Part shown: positions 53,201 through 64,000 of the stretch, in pieces
Position numbering within the stretch: position 1 is the first letter of the stretch
How the letters are laid out: every line of letters starts with the position of its first letter
Source: a virus
IMG/VR virus record: IMGVR_UViG_3300024257_000003
Span: 62,001 to 126,000 of that record
Strand: one strand, 5' to 3'
Length of the DNA: 64,000 nt
Translations under genes and position numbers: made by a program
Notes under the pieces: model-generated
What the model saw: the letters and a program-made list of their open reading frames with translations, nothing else
What the model was told of the DNA's origin: nothing
Database searches by the model: none

Positions 53201-54037
53201 CAAGAGCCCCTTTGCCGCCTTTAGCCCAAGACCTATCCCGGCTCCGCCGAGTGCAGCTGTAAGGGACGGGGTTATACTGCTATAGGCCGCCATTCCGCCG
53301 ACCGCCGCGCCCCATCCAGCTCCTCCGCTGCCAATATATGAGAAAGCCCTGTCAAGATCTAGGAGGGGGATCTCTCTCCTTAGTTCTCCATATCCATATT
53401 TTTTGGTTCTTGACCAAAGGTCCTTAGCCTTGGTTAAGGCCCCCCTCCAACCAGAACCAAAGTCAGTATTGTGCTTACGGGTTTGCCCAGCAAAACCCGC
53501 ATGCTTCATTCCCTCTATATAGTTATATTCATCATCAGAACCAGAAAAGAGTAGCCCAACGCCAGCAATAGCAGCTGCTCCTCCAGCTAGAAGTCTCCAG
53601 TTGCTTTTGATCCCACGCATGGCACGTGCGCTAGTGCCCTCTGGAGCCTCCTTAGCGGCTGTTGCAACCGAGGCGGTAGGGTTGGATGGATTAGGGGCAG
53701 AAGCCCCCACAGAGGGGGCTGTAGGGGCAGCAAGGGCCATATCATCGGGGTGCCATGGCAGACTTGTCTCAGCGGTTGGAACATGAGGAACATGAGCCCA
53801 TCCTCCTGGAGCTCTAGGGGCGTATACCTTGTGCTCTGGGGTGCCCCAAGCAGGAGCAGTTCCAGTGGTCTTATATATACTGTCTAGAACATCCCAAGCG
53901 GCCTGACCTCTTGCACCCTTTAGCTCGTCTGCAGAGAGTCCCCCCATGAGCTTAGAGACTCGCTTCGCATGAGCGCCCAGATCATTAGAGGCATCCCAAT
54001 TGGTTTTACCTGCTGCGAAGTCGTCTATGGCTGACAA
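50201..54037 (-). CDS. Multi-enzyme cargo protein: NTase-like, kinase-like and SNase modules with four repeated linkers
   Basis: 1278 residues. A linker of the form EG[ML]xHxGFxGxxRKxxxDFGSGW occurs four times (its Asp at 192, 739, 981, 1227). It separates: an N-terminal part with a TM helix (~148-165); a part with a nucleotidyltransferase-like motif (GGVAREHL, then DIDLLV, Asp608/Asp610); a kinase-fold module (HGDLNFGN 877-884, DYG at 901); and an SNase module (LRLAGIDAPE with Arg1030 and Glu1038, YGR with Arg1088). All key residues for kinase and SNase are present. Probably packaged and ejected; the linkers may be sorting or cleavage sites. Confidence 0.75.
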   Translation of the reverse strand: MSAIDDFAAGKTNWDASNDLGAHAKRVSKLMGGLSADELKGARGQAAWDVLDSIYKTTGTAPAWGTPEHKVYAPRAPGGWAHVPHVPTAETSLPWHPDDMALAAPTAPSVGASAPNPSNPTASVATAAKEAPEGTSARAMRGIKSNWRLLAGGAAAIAGVGLLFSGSDDEYNYIEGMKHAGFAGQTRKHNTDFGSGWRGALTKAKDLWSRTKKYGYGELRREIPLLDLDRAFSYIGSGGAGWGAAVGGMAAYSSITPSLTAALGGAGIGLGLKAAKGLLGKGGRNYRKNLAAFKKSRPEIERYEAAAEKINIRAAGPEKTWTPKSTLDLGAGFSHGAPNYAHDSILETQRLLPGGSNALNEAGSVGVYGSRMQKGSREELLSAYAKSSATGNSSVSDSTFFFIPEKELSKLDMSEGAHLYTRNQSIRFESTEKKILRTDMKPRDFRMPRIGHADKPHAVRSYDPKTDAVTLSRTDFIERRELEGFSATGVLRDFFHQKKVEGLRRGTRRLRGEVEVRVLKGVSTEDYNPSHIGRPTKIVKEEGGISAAFSNAEAAGLSDPNNPAAIAGVGALADEIAGMGGNLYVKGGVAREHLVSSLRPEWTRQSKDIDLLVTGDIGLDKVYGAMAKHQSFFDVQIQKDLPSFFKGTDMTANQAVIEASSGRLLHTQAAADDIVAGKVRYLDMSDAGRAHQRMSKFQGYYPGMQIEPGKISGKDDAYNVIEGLRHEGFKGPARKKTADFGSGWNALRGLTRAAETFAEMTGSPGFQDAIALATRVKRLGAGASGEAHLMEGYFRGQSFNFVRKAGRIPKSEVALTSKASSSVGPDVYAARPGRQGQMDMEYFEGSPLKDLSPSELREVGLGRINEAVSTLHEQMRHGDLNFGNIVLTADQRGAKRIGIIDYGSPLGQWTGKGKRHGEIVRKEGGGRQIRAISEEAALKRDKQVVSTLYERQVRSNRALNPEEGMAHGGGVADATRSKKTDFGSPWQGLDHALNRRYEGQIGQQKVTDYEIEDADTVKLMLSGGNTMSLRLAGIDAPEVSHGDAYASNKVFQDQPYGERATEMLEELMASQSSMTAVFDPNAGSTYGRTPALLFGDDNVNLNLQLVRQGAAASLPFGKASDRIFDARAFNRAQEEAVESETGMWSDAGWRAAHNIQKGAKRKITHNAFTDLERLFGNFRASSIVHRIRNPDTELSAMQAAGGRDDSTIQEGLRHGWAQANRQANIGDFGSGYRIDGVINTVKRSTRTRRGLMEGNRIARGWSKRMMNSENWTQHHIGN

Positions 54038-54040
54038 GTG

Positions 54041-54901
54041 CTACTCCTTTTCCTCAGTAATCTGTGCCTGTAGTTGCTTAACTCTCTTCATTAGTTCAGA
54101 CATGTGCACAGAAGCGTCCTTAACATTCTCACCCTCTCGAGCGGTCATGACTCTTTGTTCTCTTCTGGTCCCTACTAGTTCCTTACGAAGACGATCCTTC
54201 CGCGCCCACAACTTCTCCTTAATCTTCATAAGGTCAGCTACATCCTTTACATAGTTGTCTACAATGTCTCCCGCCTTAGTAGTTGTAGTACTAACAAGCT
54301 TCTCTTCTGTAAGTCCTTGCAGTTCAGGCTCCGACGCAAGCTTTGCGTTGACCCTGCTCTCTAATAGTTCTATCTCTGCAAGTTCTAGTATGAACCTTTG
54401 GTCTGTATACTCTTCCTCTCTTCCGGTCACATCAAACTCTATGGAAAGCTTTTGTACTGCATCATGTAGGATGTCTGTCTCTATTGGGCATGCCCTTCCT
54501 ATTGGAACAACCCGACGACTCTCCCCTGATCTATCTATCTCCTCTTGGAGGCTTACATAAGGACAGGTGCGGGCACGGGGACAAACCTCTGGGCCCCAGC
54601 AGGTCATGATCTGCTGTATAGAAGCACCAGTCTTCATACGCTGGTGAGCGGTCCTTAGGCCGCGAGCTTCTTCAGCTGTGAGTTGAATATCAGTATAGGC
54701 GCCAGAGGCAAGCTTCATCCCGTCGAACCAGTTGTGCCTTACAACATCCCCGCCTTCAGTTATCGCTGTCCCATTAAATGAGACAAGTGCCATCTTATCT
54801 CCTTTGGGAACCTTCTCTAGTATAGGGAGCTTCTTAGGAGAAGGCTTCTCTTGGTCTACTATAGGAAGACCATCTTCGTATTCTGGGATCCATTCATCCA
54901 T
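54041..54901 (-). CDS. Cysteine-cluster protein, possible terminase-associated factor
   Basis: 286 residues. Cys101, Cys107, Cys113 and Cys138 (CWGPEVCPRARTCPY and PIGRACPIE) form a conserved-looking metal-binding site I have seen in other phage proteins of unknown role. The C-terminal ~120 residues are a long coiled coil. It is at the start of the late gene set, where a terminase small subunit would be expected, but no helix-turn-helix is evident. GGAGAAGTTGTA precedes the ATG. Confidence 0.5.
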   Translation of the reverse strand: MDEWIPEYEDGLPIVDQEKPSPKKLPILEKVPKGDKMALVSFNGTAITEGGDVVRHNWFDGMKLASGAYTDIQLTAEEARGLRTAHQRMKTGASIQQIMTCWGPEVCPRARTCPYVSLQEEIDRSGESRRVVPIGRACPIETDILHDAVQKLSIEFDVTGREEEYTDQRFILELAEIELLESRVNAKLASEPELQGLTEEKLVSTTTTKAGDIVDNYVKDVADLMKIKEKLWARKDRLRKELVGTRREQRVMTAREGENVKDASVHMSELMKRVKQLQAQITEEKE

Positions 54902-55167
54902 TACAACTTCTCCGCTAGCATCTTAACTAGTTCCTTAAACCTTTGATATTCTTCAGGTTGCTTCAACCAATCAATTACACACCTTCTTACGTAGGTGCAA
55001 TCCATGGGGTCCTCTTTGGTCGTAGCTCGGAGCATGCCAGCGAACCTCTCTGCATAGAGAGGGCCTTCCATGAGTTTCTGTAGCTCGTGAATCAGGAGGA
55101 TGTTGTTTAGTATGTCTTGGAGGGAGGAGCCGAGTTCGGCTCTGCATCTGGCATCTAGTGCGCTCAT
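54901..55167 (-). CDS. Small helical protein
   Basis: 88 residues, all helical (LGSSLQDILNNILLIHELQK, PEEYQRFKELVKMLAEKL), with a DPMDCTYVRRCVIDW centre. GAGG lies at good distance before the ATG, and the stop overlaps the next start by 1 nt. A terminase-small-like or regulatory role is possible but not shown. Confidence 0.6.
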   Translation of the reverse strand: MSALDARCRAELGSSLQDILNNILLIHELQKLMEGPLYAERFAGMLRATTKEDPMDCTYVRRCVIDWLKQPEEYQRFKELVKMLAEKL

Positions 55168-55218
55168 AAGTGCCTCATAGGTTTTGTAAGGGATTACAAA
55201 TTATACCTTATTGCGGCG

Positions 55219-55650
55219 TTAGGAGGCAACTGTGCGGAGGGATCCTTGCTTTAATTCTTCTAGTTGCGCGGGTGAGAGATTCATCTCAATGATAGAAGAA
55301 GTCTTCTTGTCACCAGACTCTGGCGGGTCTGGTGCTATCCACTTAAAGGCCATGGAGACAAGTGCGGCGGCGATGAGAGAAGCGACAATAGATATGACCG
55401 CCCACTTCCCACTAAAGGTCGCGCCGGTGGTCTCTAGCTCCCTCAACCTCTTCTCTTGATCTACGTCCTTCGATTCCAATACGTTGACCTTTACTTTTAG
55501 TTTGGTCAACTCCTCGGGATGATAGCCTATCATCCTGCCCTTAAGTTCTTGTACGTCCCCGCTTATCTTTTCATAGTTATCATTTAATCTTTCTAGTTCT
55601 TTTAGCACATGGCGGGACCACTCATTCCACCCATTTTGATCATTGCTCAT
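55219..55650 (-). CDS. Coiled-coil protein with one membrane helix (XhlA-like layout)
   Basis: 143 residues: N-terminal coiled coil (~10-75), one transmembrane helix (~84-105, VISIVASLIAAALVSMAF), short charged C-terminus. This layout is that of XhlA-type holin accessory or haemolysin-like proteins, but other phage membrane proteins share it. GGGGAGATCTACA precedes the ATG; the stop of the PAS gene overlaps the start by 4 nt. Confidence 0.6.
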   Translation of the reverse strand: MSNDQNGWNEWSRHVLKELERLNDNYEKISGDVQELKGRMIGYHPEELTKLKVKVNVLESKDVDQEKRLRELETTGATFSGKWAVISIVASLIAAALVSMAFKWIAPDPPESGDKKTSSIIEMNLSPAQLEELKQGSLRTVAS

Positions 55651-56102
55651 TGTAGATCTCCCCGCTGTTTTTTGCTATTAGGGCAAATTTGACAAGGAGA
55701 GGGCCAGAGGCGACCAAAGGTATAGGTCTCACTCTCGTCATGCCTGGACCAGCTAGTCCAAAGAACTGTAACGTACTCCCCTTCTTTAGTCCTCAGCCGA
55801 TTAGAAGTCACAAAGTACCCCAACTCTTGTGGACTTCTTGCATGCATAACCCTTTCGATTTTTTCCCTATCCTCAGGATGAATGATATCGGAGATAGACC
55901 TCCCTTTAATTTCACTCTTTGAATACCCCAGTTCACGCAAGGCCCTGGGGTTGCAGTCTTCTATGATCAAATCGTTGAAGATAAAGATCATGTCAGGACA
56001 AGAGTTGTAGAAGTCCTCGAGCTGAGAATTCCTCTTTGCCAACTCATCGTCCCTTCTGTTCAAAGCTATCGTTAGCTTCTTCAGTTCGGTCAGTGTTTTC
56101 AT
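55647..56102 (-). CDS. PAS-domain protein
   Basis: 151 residues from the ATG at 56102 (a TTG at 56114 would add four). A short coiled coil precedes a PAS domain (~28-115): NSCPDMIFIFNDLIIEDCNP, LGYSKSEIKGRSISDIIHPE, RLRTKEGEYVTVLWTSWSR. PAS domains sense small molecules, redox or light, usually in kinases or regulators. Here it stands alone with a CQICPNS tail. It is the first gene of the leftward set and could be a sensor or partner of host signalling. Confidence 0.75.
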   Translation of the reverse strand: MKTLTELKKLTIALNRRDDELAKRNSQLEDFYNSCPDMIFIFNDLIIEDCNPRALRELGYSKSEIKGRSISDIIHPEDREKIERVMHARSPQELGYFVTSNRLRTKEGEYVTVLWTSWSRHDESETYTFGRLWPSPCQICPNSKKQRGDLQ

Positions 56103-56114
56103 GATTACATCCAA

Positions 56115-56442
56115 TAGGCGGGAGTACGGTTCAATAACAATAGAAAGCCCTTCCGGTGCGGGACGAGAATGGGTTCTAAAAAAATATGGGAAAGGGAGGG
56201 AAATATAGGGGAAAAATAAGGGAAGGCTGAAGGATTGAATATAGAGGAAAATAGGGAAAACATAGGAAAAATAAGGGAGGACCTAGTGTAAGTGTTGGGA
56301 GTAGTAGGGTACCTATCGGTGCGAGCCCCTACCCCGACGACTTGGATAGCATGTTGCTATCACACTGGGCATAACGTCCAACAACCAGAGAAGTAGCAGG
56401 CATATCGTCTGTCTTCTCTATGCATGACTTAGGAGTTATATC
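56115..56442. other. Divergent control region between leftward and rightward genes
   Basis: No gene. About 56176-56281 is a purine-rich, C-poor stretch on the plus strand with many GGG/AAAA runs. Near 56304-56332 and 56345-56361 are hairpins (GTAGGG/CCCTAC; GATAGC/GCTATC with loop ATGTT). Promoters in both directions are expected here, but I see no convincing -35/-10 pair. An origin or a transcription barrier are alternatives. Confidence 0.5.
56210..56278 (+). repeat. 14-nt direct repeat in purine tract
   Basis: GGAAAAATAAGGGA occurs at 56210-56223 and again at 56265-56278 (55-nt period). A third related segment (GGAAAATAGGGAAAA) lies between. Could be binding sites for a phage protein, an unwinding element, or simple low-complexity sequence. 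Confidence 0.55.
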
Positions 56443-57249
56443 ATGCAGTCCATCATCACCTCCATCATCGCCCTGTCCGATCACCTGTACCACGCCCTCA
56501 TCAACGCGATCGACACGCAGGATGCTGTGGCGCGCTGCTACGATGCGATCTGGTACTACCACGCACAGGTCCGCATCGACAACGGGCACAAGACCGAGAC
56601 CTTCACCCGTGAGGGTGACAGCGTCATGCGTGAGGTGGTGTACAACGCCTCCATCATGGGCAAGGCCAGTCGCAAGCTGGCTGTCACCGGTCACGCGCAG
56701 GTGCTCATGGATGTGAGCAAGCTGTCCTTCACCCACACCTATGCTCGTGAGCCCCAGGCACACACGAGTCAGGTGAAGGTCACCATCGTGTACCCTGCGG
56801 CCAAGGCTGAGCCCACTGACCTCGAGGTGCGCCTCGCCTACGAGGAGTGGATGAACATCCAGGGCCACCTGGAGCCCAAGGAGGAGGCCAAGGCTGAGGC
56901 TGATGCTGAGGTGGTGGAGGATGAGCACGTGGTGGAGGACTACTGGTACCTCATGGAGGACTACACCAAGGAGGATGCCCTCCACCTGGAGCGCAGCACG
57001 ATGGGCAAGGACCGTAAGGCGTGGGATAGGCCCAACCGGGTGCTGGAGGTGGCCATGGAGGCACAGGCCAAGGCCCGTGAGGAGGAGGCAGAGGCCCTGT
57101 ACCAGAGGGAGATGGCTGAGGCCAAGGCCCTCTGGGAGGCCAAGGTTGAGCTCTTCAAGAAGGTGAAGGGTGGCATGCCCAAGTACCCCCGAACCCACTA
57201 TGGTAAGCCCATGCCTCGGGCCTACTGGAAGGAGGTGTTCGGGGGCTAG
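56443..57249 (+). CDS. Charged protein of unknown function (first gene of rightward set)
   Basis: 268 residues. The N-terminal ~130 residues are mixed alpha/beta (LYHALINAIDTQDAVARCYD, VLMDVSKLSFTHTYA). The rest is Glu/Lys/Ala-rich helix (MEAQAKAREEEAEALYQREM). No known domain. AGGAGTTATATC precedes the ATG. Codon use (GAG, AAG, GCC, CGC) differs strongly from the leftward genes. Confidence 0.7.
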   Translation: MQSIITSIIALSDHLYHALINAIDTQDAVARCYDAIWYYHAQVRIDNGHKTETFTREGDSVMREVVYNASIMGKASRKLAVTGHAQVLMDVSKLSFTHTYAREPQAHTSQVKVTIVYPAAKAEPTDLEVRLAYEEWMNIQGHLEPKEEAKAEADAEVVEDEHVVEDYWYLMEDYTKEDALHLERSTMGKDRKAWDRPNRVLEVAMEAQAKAREEEAEALYQREMAEAKALWEAKVELFKKVKGGMPKYPRTHYGKPMPRAYWKEVFGG

Positions 57250-57267
57250 GTAGCATAGGTATGGTGA

Positions 57268-57480
57268 CCCCTCTTCGGAGGGGGCTCCATATGGGTACAT
57301 GTGGGGTGTATGGTGTATGCCATATGCTACTACGTGTACCCATATGGGGTACTGTATAGGTAGTAGGGTATAGCCCTGCTACTGGTACCACTGGGCATAC
57401 CACATGGGGTGGTGTGCTATAGCAGGGGGGTGTATAGCCCGAGCCCCCCTCTGTGTATAGTAGGGCATAGGGGTACTATA
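57268..57480 (+). promoter_or_regulatory. Hairpin array between the first two rightward genes
   Basis: Six stem-loops in a row: CCCCTC/GAGGGG with a TTCG tetraloop (57268-57283); a 13-bp perfect stem CCATATGGGTACA/TGTACCCATATGG, extendable to 15 (57287-57347); GTAGTAGGG/CCCTGCTAC with loop TATAG (57360-57382); CATACCAC/GTGGTGTG (57396-57416); GGGGGG/CCCCCC (57425-57449); TATAGTA/TACTATA (57456-57480). The last one holds the next gene's AGGGG in its loop and the A of its ATG in the stem. There is no T-tract, so these are not ordinary terminators. Confidence 0.6.
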
Positions 57481-57683
57481 TGTACGTCATCAAGACCGAG
57501 TGGGCCCGCTACGTGCGAGGGACGTTGAGGGACGTTGAGGTGCGCCTCAGCGTCGTGACCCACGAGGAGGCCAAGCGGCTTCTCCGCACTGAGGTCCCCC
57601 TCGTGGGGAGGTCCCTCCAGGGGATCTCCTCCCATGTGGGGGACCGACTGAGCGTCCCCACCTGGACGCTGGTCAGCGAGTAA
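57480..57683 (+). CDS. Small protein of unknown function
   Basis: 67 residues (MYVIKTEWARYVRGTLRDVE ... PTWTLVSE), mixed alpha/beta, no known domain. GC-rich codons support it being real. Its ribosome-binding site lies in the loop of a hairpin that ends at the start codon, so initiation may be regulated. Confidence 0.6.
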   Translation: MYVIKTEWARYVRGTLRDVEVRLSVVTHEEAKRLLRTEVPLVGRSLQGISSHVGDRLSVPTWTLVSE

Positions 57684-57693
57684 GGTGATGGGG

Positions 57694-57771
57694 CACACGA
57701 CTGTCGTGAGACAGCCGTGTGTTTAAACCACAGGACCGGTCCAAAGTCCGGTCCAAGCAGCCCCAAGGGGC
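57694..57771 (+). promoter_or_regulatory. Three-hairpin leader
   Basis: CACACG-CTGTC / GACAG-CGTGTG (11 bp with one A-C mismatch) capped by a GTGA (GNRA) tetraloop (57694-57721); GGACCGG/CCGGTCC with an 8-nt loop (57733-57754); GCCC/GGGC with loop CAAG (57760-57771). The next gene's AGGAG follows within 4 nt. Confidence 0.6.
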
Positions 57772-57783
57772 ATAGGAGTAGTC

Positions 57784-57969
57784 ATGATTGATTCCACCAA
57801 GCGGGTCACCCTCGATGAGGTGTTGGAGTTGTCGGGTGTGGAGGACCAGAGGGTCTTCGCCTGGGAGCAGTGGGTCGTCAAGGGCAAGGGGGTCCAGGTG
57901 ACCCTGGACGTCGACTTCGACGAGAAGACCCACAAGTACAAGGAGATCCACATCTTCATCGGGCGTTAG
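57784..57969 (+). CDS. Small protein of unknown function
   Basis: 61 residues (MIDSTKRVTLDEVLELSGVE ... KEIHIFIGR), helix-strand pattern with a beta hairpin at the end. AGGAGTAGTC precedes the ATG. Its stop codon TAG lies in the 4-nt loop of a perfect 9-bp hairpin. Confidence 0.65.
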   Translation: MIDSTKRVTLDEVLELSGVEDQRVFAWEQWVVKGKGVQVTLDVDFDEKTHKYKEIHIFIGR

Positions 57970-58118
57970 CGCCCGATGAGCCCTTCCCCACCGGGCTAAA
58001 GGTGGGTGTTCCACATAGGCGCATCAGGGGTAACACCTTGGATGCGTCTTATATGGGGCATAGGCACATGTTGTGCCACCCCTTGGTGCAGGTACGCACC
58101 ATACACGCCCTATTGGGC
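57957..58118 (+). promoter_or_regulatory. Structured leader A (stop-codon hairpin plus five-hairpin cassette)
   Basis: CATCGGGCG/CGCCCGATG around loop TTAG (57957-57978, contains the stop codon); CCCACC/GGTGGG with loop GGGCTAAA (57987-58006); CGCATC/GATGCG around AGGGGTAACACCTTG (58020-58046); GGCACA/TGTGCC inside GGGG/CCCC (58055-58082); TGGTGC/GCACCA (58084-58101); GCCC/GGGC with loop TATT (58107-58118). Order and loop sequences recur in leader B at 58446-58573. Confidence 0.65.
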
Positions 58119-58139
58119 ACATTAGATAGGAGCTCACCC

Positions 58140-58415
58140 ATGAGCAAGTCCAACGTCGGCAACGAGAGCCAGTTCATCAACTTCGTTAATGGTTTGTGCG
58201 CGGGAAGCCTGTTGCAGTTCGCCATCATCGGCCTCCACACGGCCGCCTGGAAGAAGGACCAGCTGGGGACTGCCAGGCTCCGGCAGTTGGGCCAGTACCA
58301 CGATGACACCACCAGCCGGTTGATCCTCTCCAACGGCGTCGTCGTGGACGTGGATTGGGGCTTCCAAAAGGGGCAGTCCGCCCATCGCCTCTGGTGGCGC
58401 GTGCGCTCTAACTAG
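58140..58415 (+). CDS. Small protein of unknown function
   Basis: 91 residues from the ATG at 58140, preceded by AGGAGCTCACCC; longer upstream frames run through the hairpin leader and were rejected. MSKSNVGNESQFINFVNGLC, then a hydrophobic stretch (SLLQFAIIGLHTAAW), then beta strands (LILSNGVVVDVDWGFQKG). No known domain. The stop codon overlaps the loop/stem junction of a GCTCT/AGAGC hairpin. Confidence 0.65.
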   Translation: MSKSNVGNESQFINFVNGLCAGSLLQFAIIGLHTAAWKKDQLGTARLRQLGQYHDDTTSRLILSNGVVVDVDWGFQKGQSAHRLWWRVRSN

Positions 58416-58573
58416 AGCAGCGCAGGCCGCCTGAATAAGCCCTCTCCCCCGTCGGGCTACAATAGACGGGGGATCACATGAGGACATCAGGGGTAGCACC
58501 TTGGCGTTCTGATGTGGTTTCTAGGGACATGCCGTCCCCATTGGGCAGTTTCGCCCATCACGCCCTATTGGGC
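58405..58573 (+). promoter_or_regulatory. Structured leader B, homologous to leader A
   Basis: GCTCT/AGAGC with loop AACT at the stop codon (58405-58418); CCCCCGTC/GACGGGGG with loop GGGCTACAATA (58446-58472); ACATCAG/CTGATGT around GGGTAGCACCTTGGCGTT (58484-58515); GGGAC/GTCCC (58524-58538); TGGGC/GCCCA (58542-58557); GCCC/GGGC with loop TATT (58562-58573). The 3' hairpin and its flanks (ACGCCCTATTGGGCA) are identical to leader A, while other stems differ but still pair. Confidence 0.65.
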
Positions 58574-58592
58574 ATACATGAAAGGCCATACC

Positions 58593-59180
58593 ATGGCTAC
58601 CTTCATTCGTTCCTCCCTCCTCCTCGCCCTCCTGTTCATCTGTGCCGGTTGCGGCACCAACCCGATGGCCTTCGGGCCGTTGGGGTGTTTCGTTTTCTCG
58701 TTCATCTTCCTCTTGGCGGGGCTGATGCCCACTAAGGCGGTGATCAAGGACGACGACGAGGAGACCGAGACGATGTCCTCCCCTGAGTGGGAGGTCCAGG
58801 AGTTCCCCGCTCTGGAGATCAAGGGGGAGGTGTGCTGGCCCGAGTGGCTGGAGATCTGCGAGGAGGCCTGGACCGAGCAGGCCAAGGCTGATGAGAACGC
58901 CCGTTTGGCGGCGTGGATCGAGCAGAGCAAGGCCACCATCAGGACCCGACAGGCCGAGTCCAAGCGGATCGGCAACTGGATTGAGCAGCAGCGCATCAAG
59001 CGGTGGGTCGCGGCCCAGGAGGAGAAGGCCGCCAAGAAGGCGTGGAAGGACGCTGAGTACGCCCGCCGCTGCAAGGCGGCGCGTCAGGCCTGCGTGCTCG
59101 CCGAGCAGGAGGCGCAGGATGAACCCCTCCTGGAAGAGAGGATCGAGGAGTTCCGAAAGGAGATCCTCTCCTCCCTCTAG
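58593..59180 (+). CDS. Membrane-anchored (possibly lipoprotein) charged protein
   Basis: 195 residues from the ATG at 58593 (GAAAGGCCATACC upstream). The N-terminus SSLLLALLFICAGCGTN looks like a signal peptide with a lipobox-like CAGC, but Cys at -3 is unusual. A second hydrophobic segment (GCFVFSFIFLLAGLMP) follows. The remaining ~145 residues are Glu/Lys/Arg/Ala-rich helices exposed on one side. It could be an envelope-located protein such as a superinfection-exclusion factor; this is inference. Confidence 0.65.
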   Translation: MATFIRSSLLLALLFICAGCGTNPMAFGPLGCFVFSFIFLLAGLMPTKAVIKDDDEETETMSSPEWEVQEFPALEIKGEVCWPEWLEICEEAWTEQAKADENARLAAWIEQSKATIRTRQAESKRIGNWIEQQRIKRWVAAQEEKAAKKAWKDAEYARRCKAARQACVLAEQEAQDEPLLEERIEEFRKEILSSL

Positions 59181-59184
59181 TTTA

Positions 59185-59301
59185 GAATCACGATTCGATA
59201 GTCGTCCTGAGAGCTGGGACGTTAAACTGCTCACATTAGCAGCAACCCATGGTGGGAAGCTGCTTAACTGGGGTAGCCAATCCCCAAGCCCCGTGATGGG
59301 G
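59185..59301 (+). promoter_or_regulatory. Structured leader C
   Basis: GAAT/ATTC with loop CACG (59185-59196); AGCAGC/GCTGCT around CCCA-TGG-TGGG (59238-59264); TGGGG/CCCCA with an 8-nt loop (59269-59286); CCCC/GGGG with loop GTGAT (59289-59301). AAAGGAG and a GTG start follow directly. Confidence 0.5.
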
Positions 59302-59315
59302 TAAAGGAGTATACC

Positions 59316-60365
59316 GTGAAGAACATTGCCAAGAAGATTGGTTTCGTCTTGGGTGCCGCGATCGGCATCATCATGTTGGCCGTGATCGCGAAGTTCGTGC
59401 TGGGCATCGTCCAGCACCTGGTCACCATGGCCCTCCTGGCCGGACCCCTCCTGTTCGCCTTCCCCGCCGCTCGGCGGCGGGTGTTGGTGCTGCTGAACAA
59501 GAAGGGCCAGAAGCTCAAGGAGGCCATCGAGGGGACGCCCGCCTGGAAGGGGCGGCAGGGCGTCAAGGACGCCATCCAGGCGGGGCTTGAGAAGCAGTGG
59601 GAGTCGTTCAAGTCGGCCGCCAAGGCCGACGTGGAGGGGGAGGAGACCCAGGAGTTGTGCGACGGGTGCGGGAACATCCCGTTCTCCTGCTCCTGCGCGA
59701 CGATGTCGCCGGAAGATGTGGCTGAGGCCGTCTGGCAGATGGAGGGGGAGCCTGCGCCCTGGCAGCCCACCCTAATCGAGGGTGGGCTGGGGGAGGCCGT
59801 GGAGCTGTGCCCGGTCTTCGGGGTGGCCAAGCACTCGTGCGCCGGTTGTGACAACGGGCAGCACGAGGACCCCAACTTCGTGGACGAGATGGTGGATGAT
59901 GACGGCATCCCCGCACCGAAGGACGGTCAAGTGGCGTGCTCCACCTGTGGGTGGCCCCATGGGCCGAATGGGTGTCGCAACTGTGACGACCCCATCTGCC
60001 TTGGCCGGGACGATGATATGTACGAGTACTGCGGCGGGTGTGGCGAGACTTTCGAGAGCTGCCACTGTTGTGGCGAGCATGAGGCGGTGAAGGTGGAGGT
60101 CAAGGTGGAGGAGAGGCAGTGCTCCTGTTGTGCCATCGAGGGCAACGCGAGGACGGAGGCGTACTGTTGGTTCCACTCCGAGCAGGAGCGGGAGGGGGCG
60201 CTCCTGTCGGTGGCGGAGGCCGAGGAGTTGGCCATCTGCGTGAAGGCCGCGCAGGACGCCGTGCGACTCCTGGACGACCGCTTGGAGTGGGCCGCCAAGG
60301 CCCACGCAGGGACCGACTTCGACGCCTGGTGGGCCTGCCGTCAGGGTTGGAAGGGGGAGAAGTGA
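59316..60365 (+). CDS. Membrane protein with several zinc-ribbon-like motifs
   Basis: 349 residues, GTG start after AAAGGAGTATACC. Two hydrophobic segments (~8-49, IGFVLGAAIGIIMLAVIAKF then MALLAGPLLFAF) precede a soluble part with repeated Cys pairs: 115/118/125/127, 165/175/178, 208/211/220/223, 239/242/249/251/252 and 269/271/272/284. These look like four or five zinc ribbons (CDGCG, CSTCG, CGGCGETFESCHCC). A helical C-terminus follows. It may tether zinc domains to the membrane, possibly to bind nucleic acid or host proteins. Confidence 0.65.
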   Translation: MKNIAKKIGFVLGAAIGIIMLAVIAKFVLGIVQHLVTMALLAGPLLFAFPAARRRVLVLLNKKGQKLKEAIEGTPAWKGRQGVKDAIQAGLEKQWESFKSAAKADVEGEETQELCDGCGNIPFSCSCATMSPEDVAEAVWQMEGEPAPWQPTLIEGGLGEAVELCPVFGVAKHSCAGCDNGQHEDPNFVDEMVDDDGIPAPKDGQVACSTCGWPHGPNGCRNCDDPICLGRDDDMYEYCGGCGETFESCHCCGEHEAVKVEVKVEERQCSCCAIEGNARTEAYCWFHSEQEREGALLSVAEAEELAICVKAAQDAVRLLDDRLEWAAKAHAGTDFDAWWACRQGWKGEK

Positions 60366-60553
60366 GGAAGCTGAGCTGCGAGAAGGCGGTCAGGCTTTTG
60401 GCCTGTGCCTCCACGGTGGCTGGCTACTACGGGCCTATCCCGCCGGTCAAGCGGGATGAACTGGTTCAGGCCCTCGGGGTGACGCCCGAGGAGATCGATG
60501 CCTGGTGGAACAACCAGATGAGCATCGAGTGGGACGGCGCCTCCAAGCACTAG
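60362..60553 (+). CDS. Small protein, translationally coupled
   Basis: 63 residues from a GTG at 60362 that overlaps the upstream stop as GTGA, with GGGGGAG upstream. MRKLSCEKAVRLLACASTVA, then DELVQALGVTPEEIDAWWN, a short helical unit resembling a helix-turn-helix or UBA-like bundle. Function unknown. Confidence 0.6.
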   Translation: MRKLSCEKAVRLLACASTVAGYYGPIPPVKRDELVQALGVTPEEIDAWWNNQMSIEWDGASKH

Positions 60554-60566
60554 TCCCACAGCCGTA

Positions 60567-60823
60567 CCTAGTCCGGCATTATAATAGACTAGGACTCCCT
60601 CCTGTTATCACGATCTCCTATCGTGGTATGAGAAGGGTGCTGAACAAGTGCCCTTACAATCTGTTCTCCATGGGTCATGGAGGGTCTAGTGTGTACCCAA
60701 CACACTCCCTGGCTCTAGGGTTACCAAGAGCTAGTATGCACAACCCCGGCCAAAAACAGGGGGAGGATAATGGCGTGTAACCGACGCTGCAAGTCCCGTA
60801 TGGGACTGTTGCCCGAAAGGGCA
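60567..60823 (+). promoter_or_regulatory. Structured leader D
   Basis: CCTAGTC/GACTAGG with a loop containing TATAAT (60567-60593); TATCACGAT/ATCGTGGTA with loop CTCCT (60606-60628); AAGGGTGC/GTGCCCTT with loop TGAACAA (60633-60655); CTCCATG/CATGGAG with loop GGT (60666-60682); AGTGTGT/ACACACT (60688-60706); GCTCT/AGAGC around AGGGTTACCA (60712-60731); CCCC/GGGG (60744-60762); AGTCCC/GGGACT with loop GTAT (60792-60807); TGCCC/GGGCA with a GAAA tetraloop (60810-60823). A ribosome-binding site GAAAGG follows. Confidence 0.65.
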
Positions 60824-60836
60824 GAAAGGCTCCAAC

Positions 60837-61817
60837 ATGAGCACCAAGAACTTCGACCTCGCTCAGATCCTCGCCGATGTCACCAGCATCAACTTGGAGG
60901 CGCTGGTCGCCTCCAAGAAGGCCAAGGAGGAGGCCGAGAAGGTCGCCTCGAAGGAGGCCAAGAAGGCCAGGGAGGAGGCCGCCGCTTGGGCGGCGGCCAA
61001 GGCCGAGGAGAAGGCCAAGGAGGAGGCCGAGAAGCGGGCCGACCTGGCCCGCCTCAACCGGGAGGAGGCGGCCAGGAAGGAGGCCGCCAAGAAGGAGGCC
61101 ATGAAGGCCCGCGCGCGGCTGGAGCACAGCTCCTACAGGCTCGGGCTGCTGGAGGGCCGGGTGGCCCTCCTGAGTCAGATCCAGGAGAACCTGGGGCGCA
61201 AGCTCCAGGGTATGCTGGAGGGGACGGCGGCCCAGCTGGCCGCCAAGGCCGAGGAGTTCCAGGCGGCGCGGGAGGACCTGATGGAGGCGACCAAGCGCCT
61301 CCAGGAGGAGAAGGACCTGGTGGAGGATCAGCGGATCTCCTTCGGGGAGGTGCTCCCCTTGCCCCGCCACCAGGAGGCCGGCCGTCGGGCCGCGCGGGTC
61401 GAAGGGGGCGGGGCCCTGAAGGAGATCCAGGAGGAGGCCTTCTTCGCGGCCATCGAGGCCAAGAAGGAGGCCAAGGTGGCGCAGGCCATCGAGGCCTCCG
61501 AGGAGCTGGAGGGGCTGCTGGCTCAGCTGTCCAGCCGGCCCCGGCGCTCCATCACCCGCGCCCTGAGCCGGGGGGACATCTCCCCCGCCAAGGCCGTGGA
61601 GGAGGCGAAGGCCGCCATCGAGGCGGCCAAGCGGGTCCACCAGTTCGAAAAGGTGGAGGTGGTGACGACCAAGGTCGGCAGGGCCTCCACCTTGAGGGAC
61701 CAGGACGCGGCCATCCGGATGGCCGCAAAGGGTAAGAAGCTCTCCAAGGAGGAGGGCAAGAGCTCCAACCCGAAGAAGATTGCGAAGCTGCGCCGTAAGG
61801 CCGCGCAGAAGAAGTAA
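60837..61817 (+). CDS. Long Ala/Glu/Lys coiled-coil protein
   Basis: 326 residues. The N-terminus MSTKNFDLAQILADVTSINL is related to that of the gene at 63326 (MSNKNFDFNASIV). Residues ~25-110 and 110-170 are near-continuous coiled coil rich in Glu-Glu-Ala and Lys-Ala pairs. The C-terminus is Lys/Arg-rich (KKIAKLRRKAAQKK). It could be a scaffold or nucleic-acid-bound architectural protein. GCAGAAAGGCTCCAAC precedes the ATG. The stop codon TAA lies in the loop of AGAAGA/TCTTCT. Confidence 0.7.
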   Translation: MSTKNFDLAQILADVTSINLEALVASKKAKEEAEKVASKEAKKAREEAAAWAAAKAEEKAKEEAEKRADLARLNREEAARKEAAKKEAMKARARLEHSSYRLGLLEGRVALLSQIQENLGRKLQGMLEGTAAQLAAKAEEFQAAREDLMEATKRLQEEKDLVEDQRISFGEVLPLPRHQEAGRRAARVEGGGALKEIQEEAFFAAIEAKKEAKVAQAIEASEELEGLLAQLSSRPRRSITRALSRGDISPAKAVEEAKAAIEAAKRVHQFEKVEVVTTKVGRASTLRDQDAAIRMAAKGKKLSKEEGKSSNPKKIAKLRRKAAQKK

Positions 61818-62139
61818 TCTTCTCTCTTGCCCCGCTGAATAAGCGGGGCGGTCCCCCTCGTGGGATCTAGGCTCATCACATAGGTGGTGGTCCTAGACGT
61901 CACGAGGGTAGCCGAATAGGTTGCCTCATGACAGGTGGCGCTGAACAAGCGCCGCCGCTTAGCTTTGTGCTGAATAAGCGCAGAGCTTTACATTTGGAAG
62001 CGCCCACCACCGGGGCGCATTAGTAAAATACCGGGGTTAGCGTTGCTAGAGCGCTAATTAAATGGCTTGCGTTGTGAGCCGCTGGCAAGGGGATACTCCC
62101 CACAACGGAGCAATCATGCTCCACTTTGGTCGCAAGACC
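61807..62139 (+). promoter_or_regulatory. Structured leader E
   Basis: In order: AGAAGA/TCTTCT at the stop codon (61807-61823); GCCCCGC/GCGGGGC with loop TGAATAA (61829-61849); the three-tier hairpin (61855-61908); GGTGGCGC/GCGCCGCC with loop TGAACAA (61934-61956); AGCTTTGTGC/GCGCAGAGCT with loop TGAATAA (61961-61987); GCGCCC/GGGCGC (62000-62018); TTAGCG/CGCTAA (62037-62057); GGGG/CCCC (62089-62101); GGAGC/GCTCC (62107-62122); GGTC/GACC with a GCAA tetraloop (62128-62139). Apart from these I see no gene in this 336-nt gap, only a possible 31-codon ORF from 61928. Confidence 0.65.
61855..61908 (+). ncRNA. Three-tier conserved RNA hairpin, copy 1
   Basis: Outer stem CCCTCGTG/CACGAGGG (8 bp); middle stem TCTAGG/CCTAGA; a small CT/GT internal loop; apical stem CATCAC/GTGGTG with loop ATAG. 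Copy 2 at 62989-63046 keeps all three stems while changing bases on both sides, so the pairing is probably real in RNA. Confidence 0.65.
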
Positions 62140-62153
62140 TGAAAGGCCACATC

Positions 62154-62951
62154 ATGGCCATCTTCAACACCATCAAGTCCTCCGCCTCCGCCACCGCCGA
62201 GAAGGGCTTGCTCGCCCTCGGGCGGGCCAGCTGCAGCCTCAACCTCCGGAGCCCCATGCTCCGGAAGTTGAACGCAGCGCCCTTGATGGCGGTGGCGCCC
62301 TCGCACATGCGGGGGGCGTGTGAGGAGCACATGGAGCGCATGAACAAGCGCTCCATGGAGGCCTGGGAGCAGGACTCCCTCGTGGGTATGGCGACTTACA
62401 TCGCCGAGAACCCGGAGCCCCGGAAGGAGCTGGAGGACTGGATGGCCTTCGCCTGCCGGGTGGCCGCCTACCGGGCGGCCCAGGTGGGCGACGTCACCCA
62501 GGCGCTCGCCGGGATGGCTTCCCGTGCAGGGCTGAGCCGCACGACGGCCAACCTCTGGGGCAAGACGCGGGGTCTTGATGACTTCGCCGATGCCCTGGAG
62601 GCCCACGCAACCGTGGGCGACTGCAAGTGGTGCCAGCCGCACCCCTGTGGTTGCCACGCCAAGGCGGGCACGTGCCGCACTTGCGACATCACCATCTTCA
62701 GCGACAACCGGGGGTACGACCGGTCCATCTGCGTGCACTGCGATGAGGACCGCGTCCGCATCGAGGCCGACGTCGAGGCGTGGCTGGAGATGGCCCAGGA
62801 GAGGTTCAGCTCCTCCTCGGCCCTGAGCGTGGGGGAGCAGCGGGAGTGGATGGAGATGATGGTGAACACCTTCATCCCCGGCCAGGTGGTGTTCACCTGG
62901 AGCGAGACGGTGGAGACGGGGGACGTCTACGAGGGTCCCATCCCCTTCTGA
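62154..62951 (+). CDS. Zinc-binding protein of unknown function
   Basis: 265 residues from the ATG at 62154 (GAAAGGCCACATC upstream). The first codons resemble those of the gene at 58593. A helical N-terminal half (ACEEHMERMNKRSMEAWEQD) is followed by Cys157/160/165/167 and Cys174/177/193/196 (CKWCQPHPCGC, CRTCDI, CVHCDED), a two-zinc ribbon or cross-brace pattern. The rest is acidic. It may bind nucleic acid or a host protein. No known family recognised. Confidence 0.65.
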   Translation: MAIFNTIKSSASATAEKGLLALGRASCSLNLRSPMLRKLNAAPLMAVAPSHMRGACEEHMERMNKRSMEAWEQDSLVGMATYIAENPEPRKELEDWMAFACRVAAYRAAQVGDVTQALAGMASRAGLSRTTANLWGKTRGLDDFADALEAHATVGDCKWCQPHPCGCHAKAGTCRTCDITIFSDNRGYDRSICVHCDEDRVRIEADVEAWLEMAQERFSSSSALSVGEQREWMEMMVNTFIPGQVVFTWSETVETGDVYEGPIPF

Positions 62952-62960
62952 TAGTATTTT

Positions 62961-63321
62961 GCCCCGCTGAATAAGCGGGGCGGGCTTAGCTCTTGCTGAG
63001 CTCTAGACTCATCCCTACGGGGGTGGCTCTAGACATTAGCAAGAGCCGCTGTGTAAGCGGTAGTAGCTGATGGTTGTGGCGCTGAGCAAGCGCCACTTTG
63101 GAGCCTTGCTGAATAAGCAGGGCTTTACATTTTGTGCCATGGGTCATGGCCGGCTTGGACTACCGTTTAGTCCAGGGCTTTGGTGGAGTAGCCCTAAACA
63201 CTCCACCCTCATGATACTGAGGTAGTATCAAACCTCTAACCGTAGGTAACGGTAAGTTGGTATTTATTATGTCCCCCGCTTGGTAAGCGGGTGCCAACGG
63301 ACACAATCCTCGAAAGGGATT
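62961..63321 (+). promoter_or_regulatory. Structured leader F, homologous to leader E
   Basis: In order: GCCCCGC/GCGGGGC with loop TGAATAA (62961-62981); three-tier hairpin (62989-63046); CCGC/GCGG with loop TGTGTAA (63046-63060); GTGGCGC/GCGCCAC with loop TGAGCAA (63076-63096); AGCCTTGC/GCAGGGCT with loop TGAATAA (63102-63124); GCCATG/CATGGC with loop GGT (63136-63150); TGGACTA/TAGTCCA (63156-63174); GGTGGAGT/ACTCCACC (63182-63207); TGATACT/AGTATCA (63212-63230); ACCGT/ACGGT (63239-63253); CCCGC/GCGGG with loop TTGGTAA (63275-63291); AATCC/GGATT holding the ribosome-binding site (63305-63321). No gene in this 374-nt gap, except a possible 51-codon ORF from 63069. Confidence 0.65.
62989..63046 (+). 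ncRNA. Three-tier conserved RNA hairpin, copy 2
   Basis: Outer stem GCTCTTGCT/AGCAAGAGC (9 bp); middle stem TCTAGA/TCTAGA; CT/GC internal loop; apical stem CATCCC/GGGGTG with a TACG (UNCG-type) loop. Compared with copy 1, a G-C pair became A-T in the middle stem and an A-T pair became C-G in the apical stem. Confidence 0.65.
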
Positions 63322-63325
63322 TACC

Positions 63326-64000
63326 ATGAGCAACAAGAACTTCGACTTCAACGCCAGCATCGTCAACCTCGCCAACCAGGAGGGTCTCCAGCCGGAGGCG
63401 TTGCTGGCCTTCGCCAACGGGGAGGGTCGCGACCTCTCCCGGATCAACGGGGGCAACTTCGCTCCCTACAGCCGGGCGCTGTTGGTGCGCTTCCAGAAGG
63501 CCCAGGAGGAGGCCAAGGTGAACCAGGAGAAGGAGGACGGGGCGCTCAGCGTCATCCTGGCCAGCTGCCTGGAGCTCCCGGTGGGCGAGACCGTCGGTGA
63601 GAAGGCCTTGGCCTACGTCCGCAAGGAGGTGGGTGAGACCTGGACCAAGGCGTCCGTGATGGAGGCCTTGAAGAAGAAGGAGGCGGAACTCCACGCGGCC
63701 CAGAAGGAGCAGGAGGAGCTGTTGTGGGACCTCCACCGCAAGGCCCTGAAGGCGCACGTCGCCGAGATCAAGGTCGATGCGAAGGATGGCCTGATCGATT
63801 GGCGCCACCTGTCGAAGGCCCTCGGTCGGATGATCGGCGACCGCGTGGTGAGCGAAGACTACGCCGCTGAGCTGGACCTCGCGGCCAACGTAGACATCGA
63901 TGCCTTCAACAACTTGATCGATGCCATGAATGTCCTGCTGAAGGGACAGAAGATCTCCGAGGGGGAAGGGAAGGAGATCATCATGGCCGTCCGAAAGGGC
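63326..64000 (+). CDS. Charged helical protein, 3' end cut by window
   Basis: Open from the ATG at 63326 (CGAAAGGGATTTACC upstream) to the window edge, 225 codons. MSNKNFDFNASIVNLANQEG is related to the start of the gene at 60837. The rest is Glu/Lys/Ala-rich helix (SRALLVRFQKAQEEAKVNQE, KKKEAELHAAQKEQEELLWD) with a more mixed part near the cut end (KDGLIDWRHLSKALGRMIGD). Function unknown; probably a paralogue of the coiled-coil protein upstream. Confidence 0.7.
   Translation, partial: MSNKNFDFNASIVNLANQEGLQPEALLAFANGEGRDLSRINGGNFAPYSRALLVRFQKAQEEAKVNQEKEDGALSVILASCLELPVGETVGEKALAYVRKEVGETWTKASVMEALKKKEAELHAAQKEQEELLWDLHRKALKAHVAEIKVDAKDGLIDWRHLSKALGRMIGDRVVSEDYAAELDLAANVDIDAFNNLIDAMNVLLKGQKISEGEGKEIIMAVRKG

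What the first reader, a model, noticed from the sequence alone, without database searches (positions are those of the whole stretch)
61855..63046. Duplicated three-tier RNA hairpin with visible compensatory changes
Copies at 61855-61908 and 62989-63046 share layout: outer stem of 8-9 bp (completely different sequences, both paired), TCTAGR/YCTAGA middle stem, CT internal loop, CATCMC/GKGGTG apical stem. Middle stem G-C to A-T and apical A-T to C-G are double changes that keep pairing. Both follow the same GCCCCGC-TGAATAA hairpin. This is a strong sign of selected RNA structure of unknown type.
Basis: seen in the sequence. Interest (0 to 1): 0.9.

Follow-up and report, generated by a model that had tools for sequence, protein, structure and literature searches.

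The report
Duplicated RNA hairpin array in phage
Two neighbouring gaps between genes of an uncultured virus of bacteria carry the same string of RNA hairpins, whose letters have drifted apart while the folds were kept, which points to an RNA element whose job is still unknown.

Summary
Both copies (61855-61908, 62989-63046) fold as one long interrupted hairpin and none of 22 compared pairs is broken. Double changes number 6 gap-free, or 4 plus one base pair gained or lost on both strands in the register with most identities. Wobble pairs favour the + strand RNA: 77/74 bits against 39/34.

The hairpin is not the unit. It is the second module of a five-hairpin array, duplicated with the spacers on either side of one gene. 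Neighbouring hairpins covary too, the longest open run is 5 nt, and small loops follow GNR-Y-A (9 of 14 pentaloops in three spacers, 19 of 687 elsewhere in the phage).

Cautions: the outer stems are diverged relatives, not "completely different"; in context the second copy is predicted to prefer three separate hairpins (-104.2 against -99.7 kcal/mol); and the comparative case rests on one duplication, since no convincing third copy was found in the ~204-kb phage or in the collections searched.

Best reading (0.38): a cis-acting RNA that keeps an untranslated spacer closed and protects the message. Antitermination, RNase III processing, weak termination and a DNA cassette remain open.

The parts
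61855..61908 (+). three-tier hairpin, copy 1 (9 + 6 + 7 pairs, 4-nt loop AUAG)
62989..63046 (+). three-tier hairpin, copy 2 (11 + 6 + 7 pairs, loop UACG)
61827..61851 (+). array 1, hairpin H1, loop GAAUA; begins 9 bases after the stop codon
61906..61926 (+). array 1, hairpin H3, loop GAAUA; its longest form overlaps the 3' end of the outer stem
61934..61956 (+). array 1, hairpin H4, loop GAACA
61961..61987 (+). array 1, hairpin H5, loop GAAUA
61986..61995 (+). shared CTTTACATTT at the end of array 1
   Evidence: 2 matches in the window, 0.05 expected
62958..62984 (+). array 2, hairpin H1, loop GAAUA
63045..63061 (+). array 2, hairpin H3, loop GUGUA
63076..63096 (+). array 2, hairpin H4, loop GAGCA
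63099..63127 (+). array 2, hairpin H5, loop GAAUA
63123..63132 (+). shared CTTTACATTT at the end of array 2
62982..63072 (+). stretch of copy 2 that can instead fold as three hairpins in a row
   Evidence: positions counted from the structure
61818..62153 (+). spacer G, holds array 1
62952..63325 (+). spacer H, holds array 2; about 70% identical to spacer G over 179 columns
60633..60655 (+). single hairpin of the same loop class (GAACA) in spacer F
62154..62951 (+). 265-aa ORF between the two arrays, no Pfam or PHROG match at E 0.1

Best explanation
The two three-tier hairpins are one module of a ~165-nt, five-hairpin cis-acting RNA array (H1, three-tier, H3, H4, H5, CUUUACAUUU) that lies just after the stop codons of two consecutive + strand genes and was copied with its spacer. 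Shown by computation: duplication, pairing kept through double changes and paired indels, preference for the + strand RNA, hardly any open stretch, a shared GNR-Y-A loop class. Inferred: genes and spacers are transcribed as one message; the untranslated spacer folds hairpin by hairpin as it emerges; whichever of its two predicted folds the three-tier region takes, it stays paired; Rho and single-strand nucleases therefore find no landing place and the message stays whole across an untranslated gap of 336-374 nt. The uniform loops may in addition be bound by a protein.
For: 22 of 22 pairs kept with 4-6 double changes. H3 keeps 6 of 6 pairs with 2 double and 3 one-sided changes. H5 has a double change and two base pairs missing on both strands of one copy. 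+ strand 77/74 bits, - strand 39/34. The ~190-nt parts fold at z -7.7 and -9.0, 0 of 200 shuffles as good. Longest open run over the five hairpins is 5 nt in both arrays; as short in 0 of 40 and 2 of 40 shuffles. The next start codon lies about 245 and 280 nt beyond the three-tier hairpin, so direct cover of a ribosome site is unlikely.
Against: No transcript data. Over the whole spacers G and H the longest open run (12 and 10 nt) is not shorter than in shuffles (as short in 25 and 14 of 40), so only the five-hairpin part is gapless. A plain shield does not explain the uniform GNR-Y-A loops. H4 of array 1 and H5 of both arrays are listed as terminator-like, the opposite effect. All comparative evidence comes from one duplication.
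Confidence: 0.38

Rival explanations
1. Antitermination or RNA-protein assembly site: a protein of the N-peptide kind, or the RNA itself as in the put sites of phage HK022 (recalled), uses the GNR-Y-A hairpins so that host RNA polymerase reads through the spacers.
For: 9 of 14 pentaloops on stems of 6 or more in spacers F, G, H are GNRYA, against 19 of 687 in the rest of the phage. GNRA-like pentaloops of phage boxB RNAs are bound by N peptides (passages of PMC12550061). No multi-subunit RNA polymerase beta family in the phage, found in 14 of 14 controls; single-subunit polymerases were not searched.
Against: No boxA-like sequence by a recalled pattern in 10 spacers, though array 2 holds a near miss AGCTCTTGC. 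No N36 family in the phage, but that model passes its cut-off in 0 of 14 controls, so the test is weak. In the cited passages the P22 boxB loop has its extra base at another place; a CRISPR RNA has the placing that fits GNR-Y-A. The arrays follow genes rather than a promoter.
Confidence: 0.22
2. RNase III-type processing site: the long imperfect helix is cut by host RNase III to separate messages, as in the early region of phage T7 (recalled).
For: Helix of 25-27 positions with two small internal loops just behind a stop codon. A Twister-P5 ribozyme directly behind another stop codon in the same gene run suggests cutting between genes.
Against: Stem length alone is not beyond shuffles: as long in 22 of 60 and 39 of 60 for spacers G and H. 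Copy 2 is predicted to fold as three short hairpins. No RNase III family in the phage; the host is unknown.
Confidence: 0.17
3. Weak or imperfect terminator: H5 with its U-rich tail ends or slows messages, and the hairpins before it trim or protect the 3' end.
For: H5 of both arrays and H4 of array 1 are among 9 terminator-like sites found in 55500-64000 (5.4 expected, sd 2.3). The tail CTTTACATTT is shared by both arrays.
Against: The tail is broken by ACA, and the three-tier hairpin has no U run behind it. The site count is within about 1.6 sd of chance.
Confidence: 0.1
4. DNA-level cassette: the spacer is a recombination or duplication unit like the PeSLs of T4-type phages, and its palindromes act as DNA.
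For: Spacers G and H flank one gene, and spacers C and D, also ~70% identical, flank another. PeSLs are reported to mediate gene shuffling in T4-like phages (passage of PMC4503421; the original papers were not held).
Against: Kept G.U pairs and the score gap between strands point to RNA. No promoter-like site on the + strand of 55500-64000.
Confidence: 0.07
5. A conserved two-state RNA switch between the long hairpin and three hairpins.
For: Copy 2 moves from long hairpin to three hairpins as the transcript grows in equilibrium folds; its alternative is as good in only 19 and 27 of 1500 flank shuffles. RNAalifold on the sequence alignment picks the downstream alternative helix rather than the outer stem.
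Against: In copy 1 the alternative is no better than flank shuffles (1095 and 557 of 1500), and with the alignment, 4 of 9 upstream and 2 of 7 downstream alternative pairs of copy 2 have no standard partner in copy 1.
Confidence: 0.06

Closest known systems
boxB hairpins of lambdoid nut sites
   Same: Short GC-rich stem with a GNRA-like pentaloop in phage RNA
   Different: Four such hairpins per array around a long hairpin, stems of 6-12 pairs, no boxA-like sequence or N36 family found
put RNA of phage HK022 (recalled)
   Same: Adjacent hairpins in phage RNA, one of them interrupted
   Different: No sequence relation known to me; direct action on RNA polymerase not tested
RNase III processing sites of phage T7 (recalled)
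   Same: Long imperfect hairpin between genes
   Different: Cleavage untested; small-hairpin array around it; stem length not beyond shuffles
PeSLs of T4-type phages
   Same: Repeated spacer with stem-loops next to exchangeable genes (passage)
   Different: No promoter-like site found; copies ~70% identical with compensatory changes
Twister-P5 ribozyme (Rfam RF02684) of the same gene run
   Same: Structured RNA directly behind a stop codon (57684-57751)
   Different: The three-tier hairpin matches no Rfam family

Membership tests
Any Rfam 15 family | match at the gathering score | tested here: not met
   Only Twister-P5 elsewhere in the window; weak matches up to E 5 in 57200-64000 do not touch the arrays
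lambdoid nut site | boxB-type GNRA-like pentaloop hairpin | tested here: met
   GNRYA loops by sequence, 9 of 14; the three-dimensional fold is not shown
lambdoid nut site | boxA upstream of boxB | tested here: not met
   No match to recalled boxA-like patterns in 10 spacers; a near miss in array 2
lambdoid nut site | N protein with boxB-binding peptide | tested here: inconclusive
   No N36 match, weak model: over its cut-off in 0 of 14 controls
RNase III site | double helix of about two turns | tested here: inconclusive
   25-27 positions if the long hairpin forms; copy 2 is predicted otherwise in context
RNase III site | cleavage by RNase III | not testable with these tools
   needs enzyme
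PeSL | repeated spacer with stem-loops | tested here: met
   spacers G/H
PeSL | early promoter in the unit | tested here: inconclusive
   No sigma-70-like site on the + strand of 55500-64000; other promoter types are not covered
intrinsic terminator | stem followed at once by a U run | tested here: inconclusive
   Not behind the three-tier hairpin; H5 of both arrays and H4 of array 1 are listed as terminator-like
CRISPR repeat of the Csy4 kind | Csy4 family protein in the same genome | tested here: not met
   no PF09618 match in the phage (over its cut-off in 1 of 14 controls)

The most novel reading that the evidence does not exclude
A new kind of phage RNA element: an array of GNR-Y-A hairpins around a covarying three-tier hairpin that assembles a ribonucleoprotein, or acts directly on the host polymerase, to carry messages through untranslated spacers, and that spreads within the genome by spacer duplication.
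Probability: 0.25. Interest if true: 0.75.

Novelty: new variant of a known kind. Interest (0 to 1): 0.5.

Why it matters
Phage spacers are mostly read for promoters and terminators. A duplicated spacer whose letters drift while a chain of helices is kept would show that the spacer RNA itself is selected, and its uniform loop class gives a handle on whatever protein or machine reads it. If it protects messages or antiterminates, it would be a compact natural part for holding multi-gene messages together.

Tried and rejected
Further copies. Model R1 over pieces covering the whole phage gave only the two copies and their reverse strands; the next hit had 15.4 bits, E 0.33. Unfiltered over 54000-64000 the next hit had 11.5 bits. 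In fetched loci of other records: 0 matches at E 1 in 69, 2 weak matches in 46 (L062 17.9 bits, E 0.11; L117 15.3 bits, E 0.64; read as chance), 0 in 83, 0 in 26 whole records, 10 of them found through the terminase and 16 look-alikes (no positive control among them). Core patterns in viral contigs found only this phage; in genome contigs one hit, L134, without the outer stem, read as chance. Metagenome contigs could not be searched.

Relatives. Besides the same phage, the terminase found 7 contigs at 29-40% identity and 5 phage records at about 30%; the head protein 4 records at 27-30%: too distant for covariation. The 265-aa ORF between the arrays found only the same phage.

Other arrays of this loop class. 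H1 pattern: 108 stretches. H5-plus-tail pattern: 16 other loci, none with more than one pair beyond C-G. Tandem pattern: 83 other loci, none with more than 2 further pairs on both hairpins. Clusters of 3 or more GNRYA hairpins within 400 nt: none in 217 loci from other records (1.9 Mb), present in 7 sources, all of this phage.

Ideas dropped. 'One long processing hairpin per spacer': stem length exceeds all shuffles only in spacers A and J (I: 2 of 60) and not in G or H. 'The core evolves more slowly than the outer stem': p 0.008 gap-free but 0.27 in the register with most identities, so not claimed. A CRISPR-repeat mimic: no Csy4 family, and stems differ between hairpins.

Literature searches. 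Searches returned nothing; from the listings of the others (titles and starts of abstracts) none describes such arrays. The library lacks most subscription journals. Papers seen: passages of PMC12550061, PMC4503421 and one reference-list passage of PMC4177764.

Full report
What is there. The window is part of an uncultured tailed phage: a terminase and a major head protein match phage families. Its 143,154-base record and IMGVR_UViG_3300024336_000005 (204,008 bases) are the same phage, 99.99-100% identical over the stretches compared. From about 56 kb the genes lie on the + strand with long spacers. The finding lies in two of them, spacer G (61818-62153) and spacer H (62952-63325), on either side of a 265-aa ORF with no Pfam or PHROG match.

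The hairpin. Alone, both copies fold into the described shape at -34.4 and -37.6 kcal/mol. All 22 compared pairs are standard in both. Gap-free there are 6 double changes (34 of 54 bases identical). In the register with more identities (38 of 54) there are 4 double changes, 2 one-sided changes to or from G.U, and one base pair present on both strands of copy 2 only. Random placement of the same number of substitutions keeps all pairs in 8 of 200,000, or 2 and 0 of 200,000 trials. With the changed positions fixed it is 4,757, and 363 and 374, of 200,000, so the evidence is good but comes from one duplication. The counting tool's shuffles reach the observed value in 6 of 500, and slid registers drop to 39-48% paired.

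Which strand. The model built from the two copies scores them at 77 and 74 bits on the + strand, 39 and 34 on the - strand. The difference comes from G.U pairs, two of which are kept in both copies. This favours + strand RNA over a DNA repeat; but the model was built from these sequences, and the - strand also folds beyond shuffles (z -6.2 and -5.1).

The larger unit. Spacers G and H are 70% identical over 179 columns. The shared part is a chain of hairpins H1, three-tier, H3, H4, H5 and then CUUUACAUUU, which occurs only at these two places in the window. H3 keeps 6 of 6 pairs with 2 double and 3 one-sided changes. H5 shows one double change, one one-sided change and two base pairs missing on both strands of one copy. 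H1 does not vary. The ~190-nt parts fold at z -7.7 and -9.0. Over the five hairpins the longest open run is 5 nt in both, as short in 0 of 40 and 2 of 40 shuffles; over the whole spacers this does not hold (25 and 14 of 40). In a scan of the phage (3,384 segment-strands of 120 nt) the one at 61801 + ranks second.

Loop class. In spacers F, G and H, 9 of 14 pentaloops on stems of six or more pairs are GNRYA; in the rest of the phage, both strands, 19 of 687 (Fisher p about 1e-10). I chose the class after seeing the loops, and hairpins within an array may descend from one another, so the p value overstates the case. boxB RNAs of lambdoid phages belong to the wider GNRA-like pentaloop class; in the passages seen the P22 boxB loop carries its extra base one place earlier, and a CRISPR RNA carries it where GNR-Y-A would (PMC12550061). 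No boxA-like pattern, N36 or Csy4 family was found.

A competing fold. In context the outer strands can pair with their outer neighbours instead. For copy 2 this three-hairpin fold is preferred (-104.2 against -99.7 kcal/mol); for copy 1 the two are close (-99.7 against -98.6; in a shorter stretch the long hairpin wins, -44.1 against -39.2). Shuffled flanks support the alternative only in copy 2 (19 and 27 of 1500; copy 1: 1095 and 557 of 1500). RNAalifold on the plain sequence alignment also picks the alternative downstream helix, not the outer stem. I therefore do not claim a conserved switch, and I lower my confidence that the outer stem is the main form of copy 2.

Distribution. No convincing third copy was found in the phage, in viral contigs by core pattern, in 198 fetched loci (two weak hits), in 26 whole records, or in species genomes apart from one chance-like pattern hit. 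Patterns and a two-sequence model can miss diverged copies, and metagenome contigs could not be searched.

How it may work. The arrays lie just behind one gene and about 245-280 nt before the next start, have no U run behind the three-tier hairpin, and leave almost nothing open. I read them as cis-acting RNA that keeps part of an untranslated spacer closed and so protects the message or its elongation, perhaps with a protein on the loops (0.38). A nut- or put-like antitermination array (0.22) and an RNase III site (0.17) are serious rivals. The terminator-like listing of H5 and of H4 in array 1 is against a pure read-through role and is kept as a rival (0.1). A DNA cassette (0.07) explains the duplication but not the compensatory changes. 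A Twister-P5 ribozyme starting on the base after another stop codon in the same gene run (57684) shows that events at the RNA level between genes are plausible in this phage.

Known or new. No Rfam family covers it, and the literature searches listed no description, in a library that lacks most subscription journals. It resembles boxB in its loops, PeSLs in its repetition and T7 processing sites in its long helix (the last recalled), and was not shown to meet the full definition of any.

Noticed in passing
57684-57751: Twister-P5 ribozyme (50.7 bits) that starts on the base after the stop codon of a 67-residue ORF (57480-57683) in the same gene run.
   Followed up: partly
57967-58139 and 58416-58592: A second pair of duplicated spacers, 70% identical over 168 columns, with a long hairpin whose apical part CATCAGGGGTARCACCTTGG is kept while the outer stem changes.
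   Followed up: partly
57279-57355: A hairpin of 34 pairs in spacer A, longer than in any of 60 shuffles.
   Followed up: no
60837, 63326, 58593, 62154: Gene starts look re-used: MSTKNFD and MSNKNFD, MATF and MAIF, with similar bases before the start codons; seen by eye.
   Followed up: no
58593-59180: ORF with a weak match to phrog_6271 'toxin' (E 0.0013, 20 bits).
   Followed up: no
L019:7870-8491: tmRNA match (83.5 bits) spanning 622 bases for a 374-position model, so with extra sequence inside.
   Followed up: no
L019, L020, L021: 32 tRNA genes by ARAGORN (6, 18 and 8), one with a four-base anticodon call (L020:14982-15069); a further tRNA match 130 bases long at L021:3566-3695.
   Followed up: no
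L014:1872-1927 (-): Pistol ribozyme (53.4 bits) in a contig whose terminase is a distant relative.
   Followed up: no
G000 and G001: The two records are the same phage; from the offsets the ends of the 204-kb record overlap by about 127 bases, which suggests a complete circular or permuted genome.
   Followed up: partly
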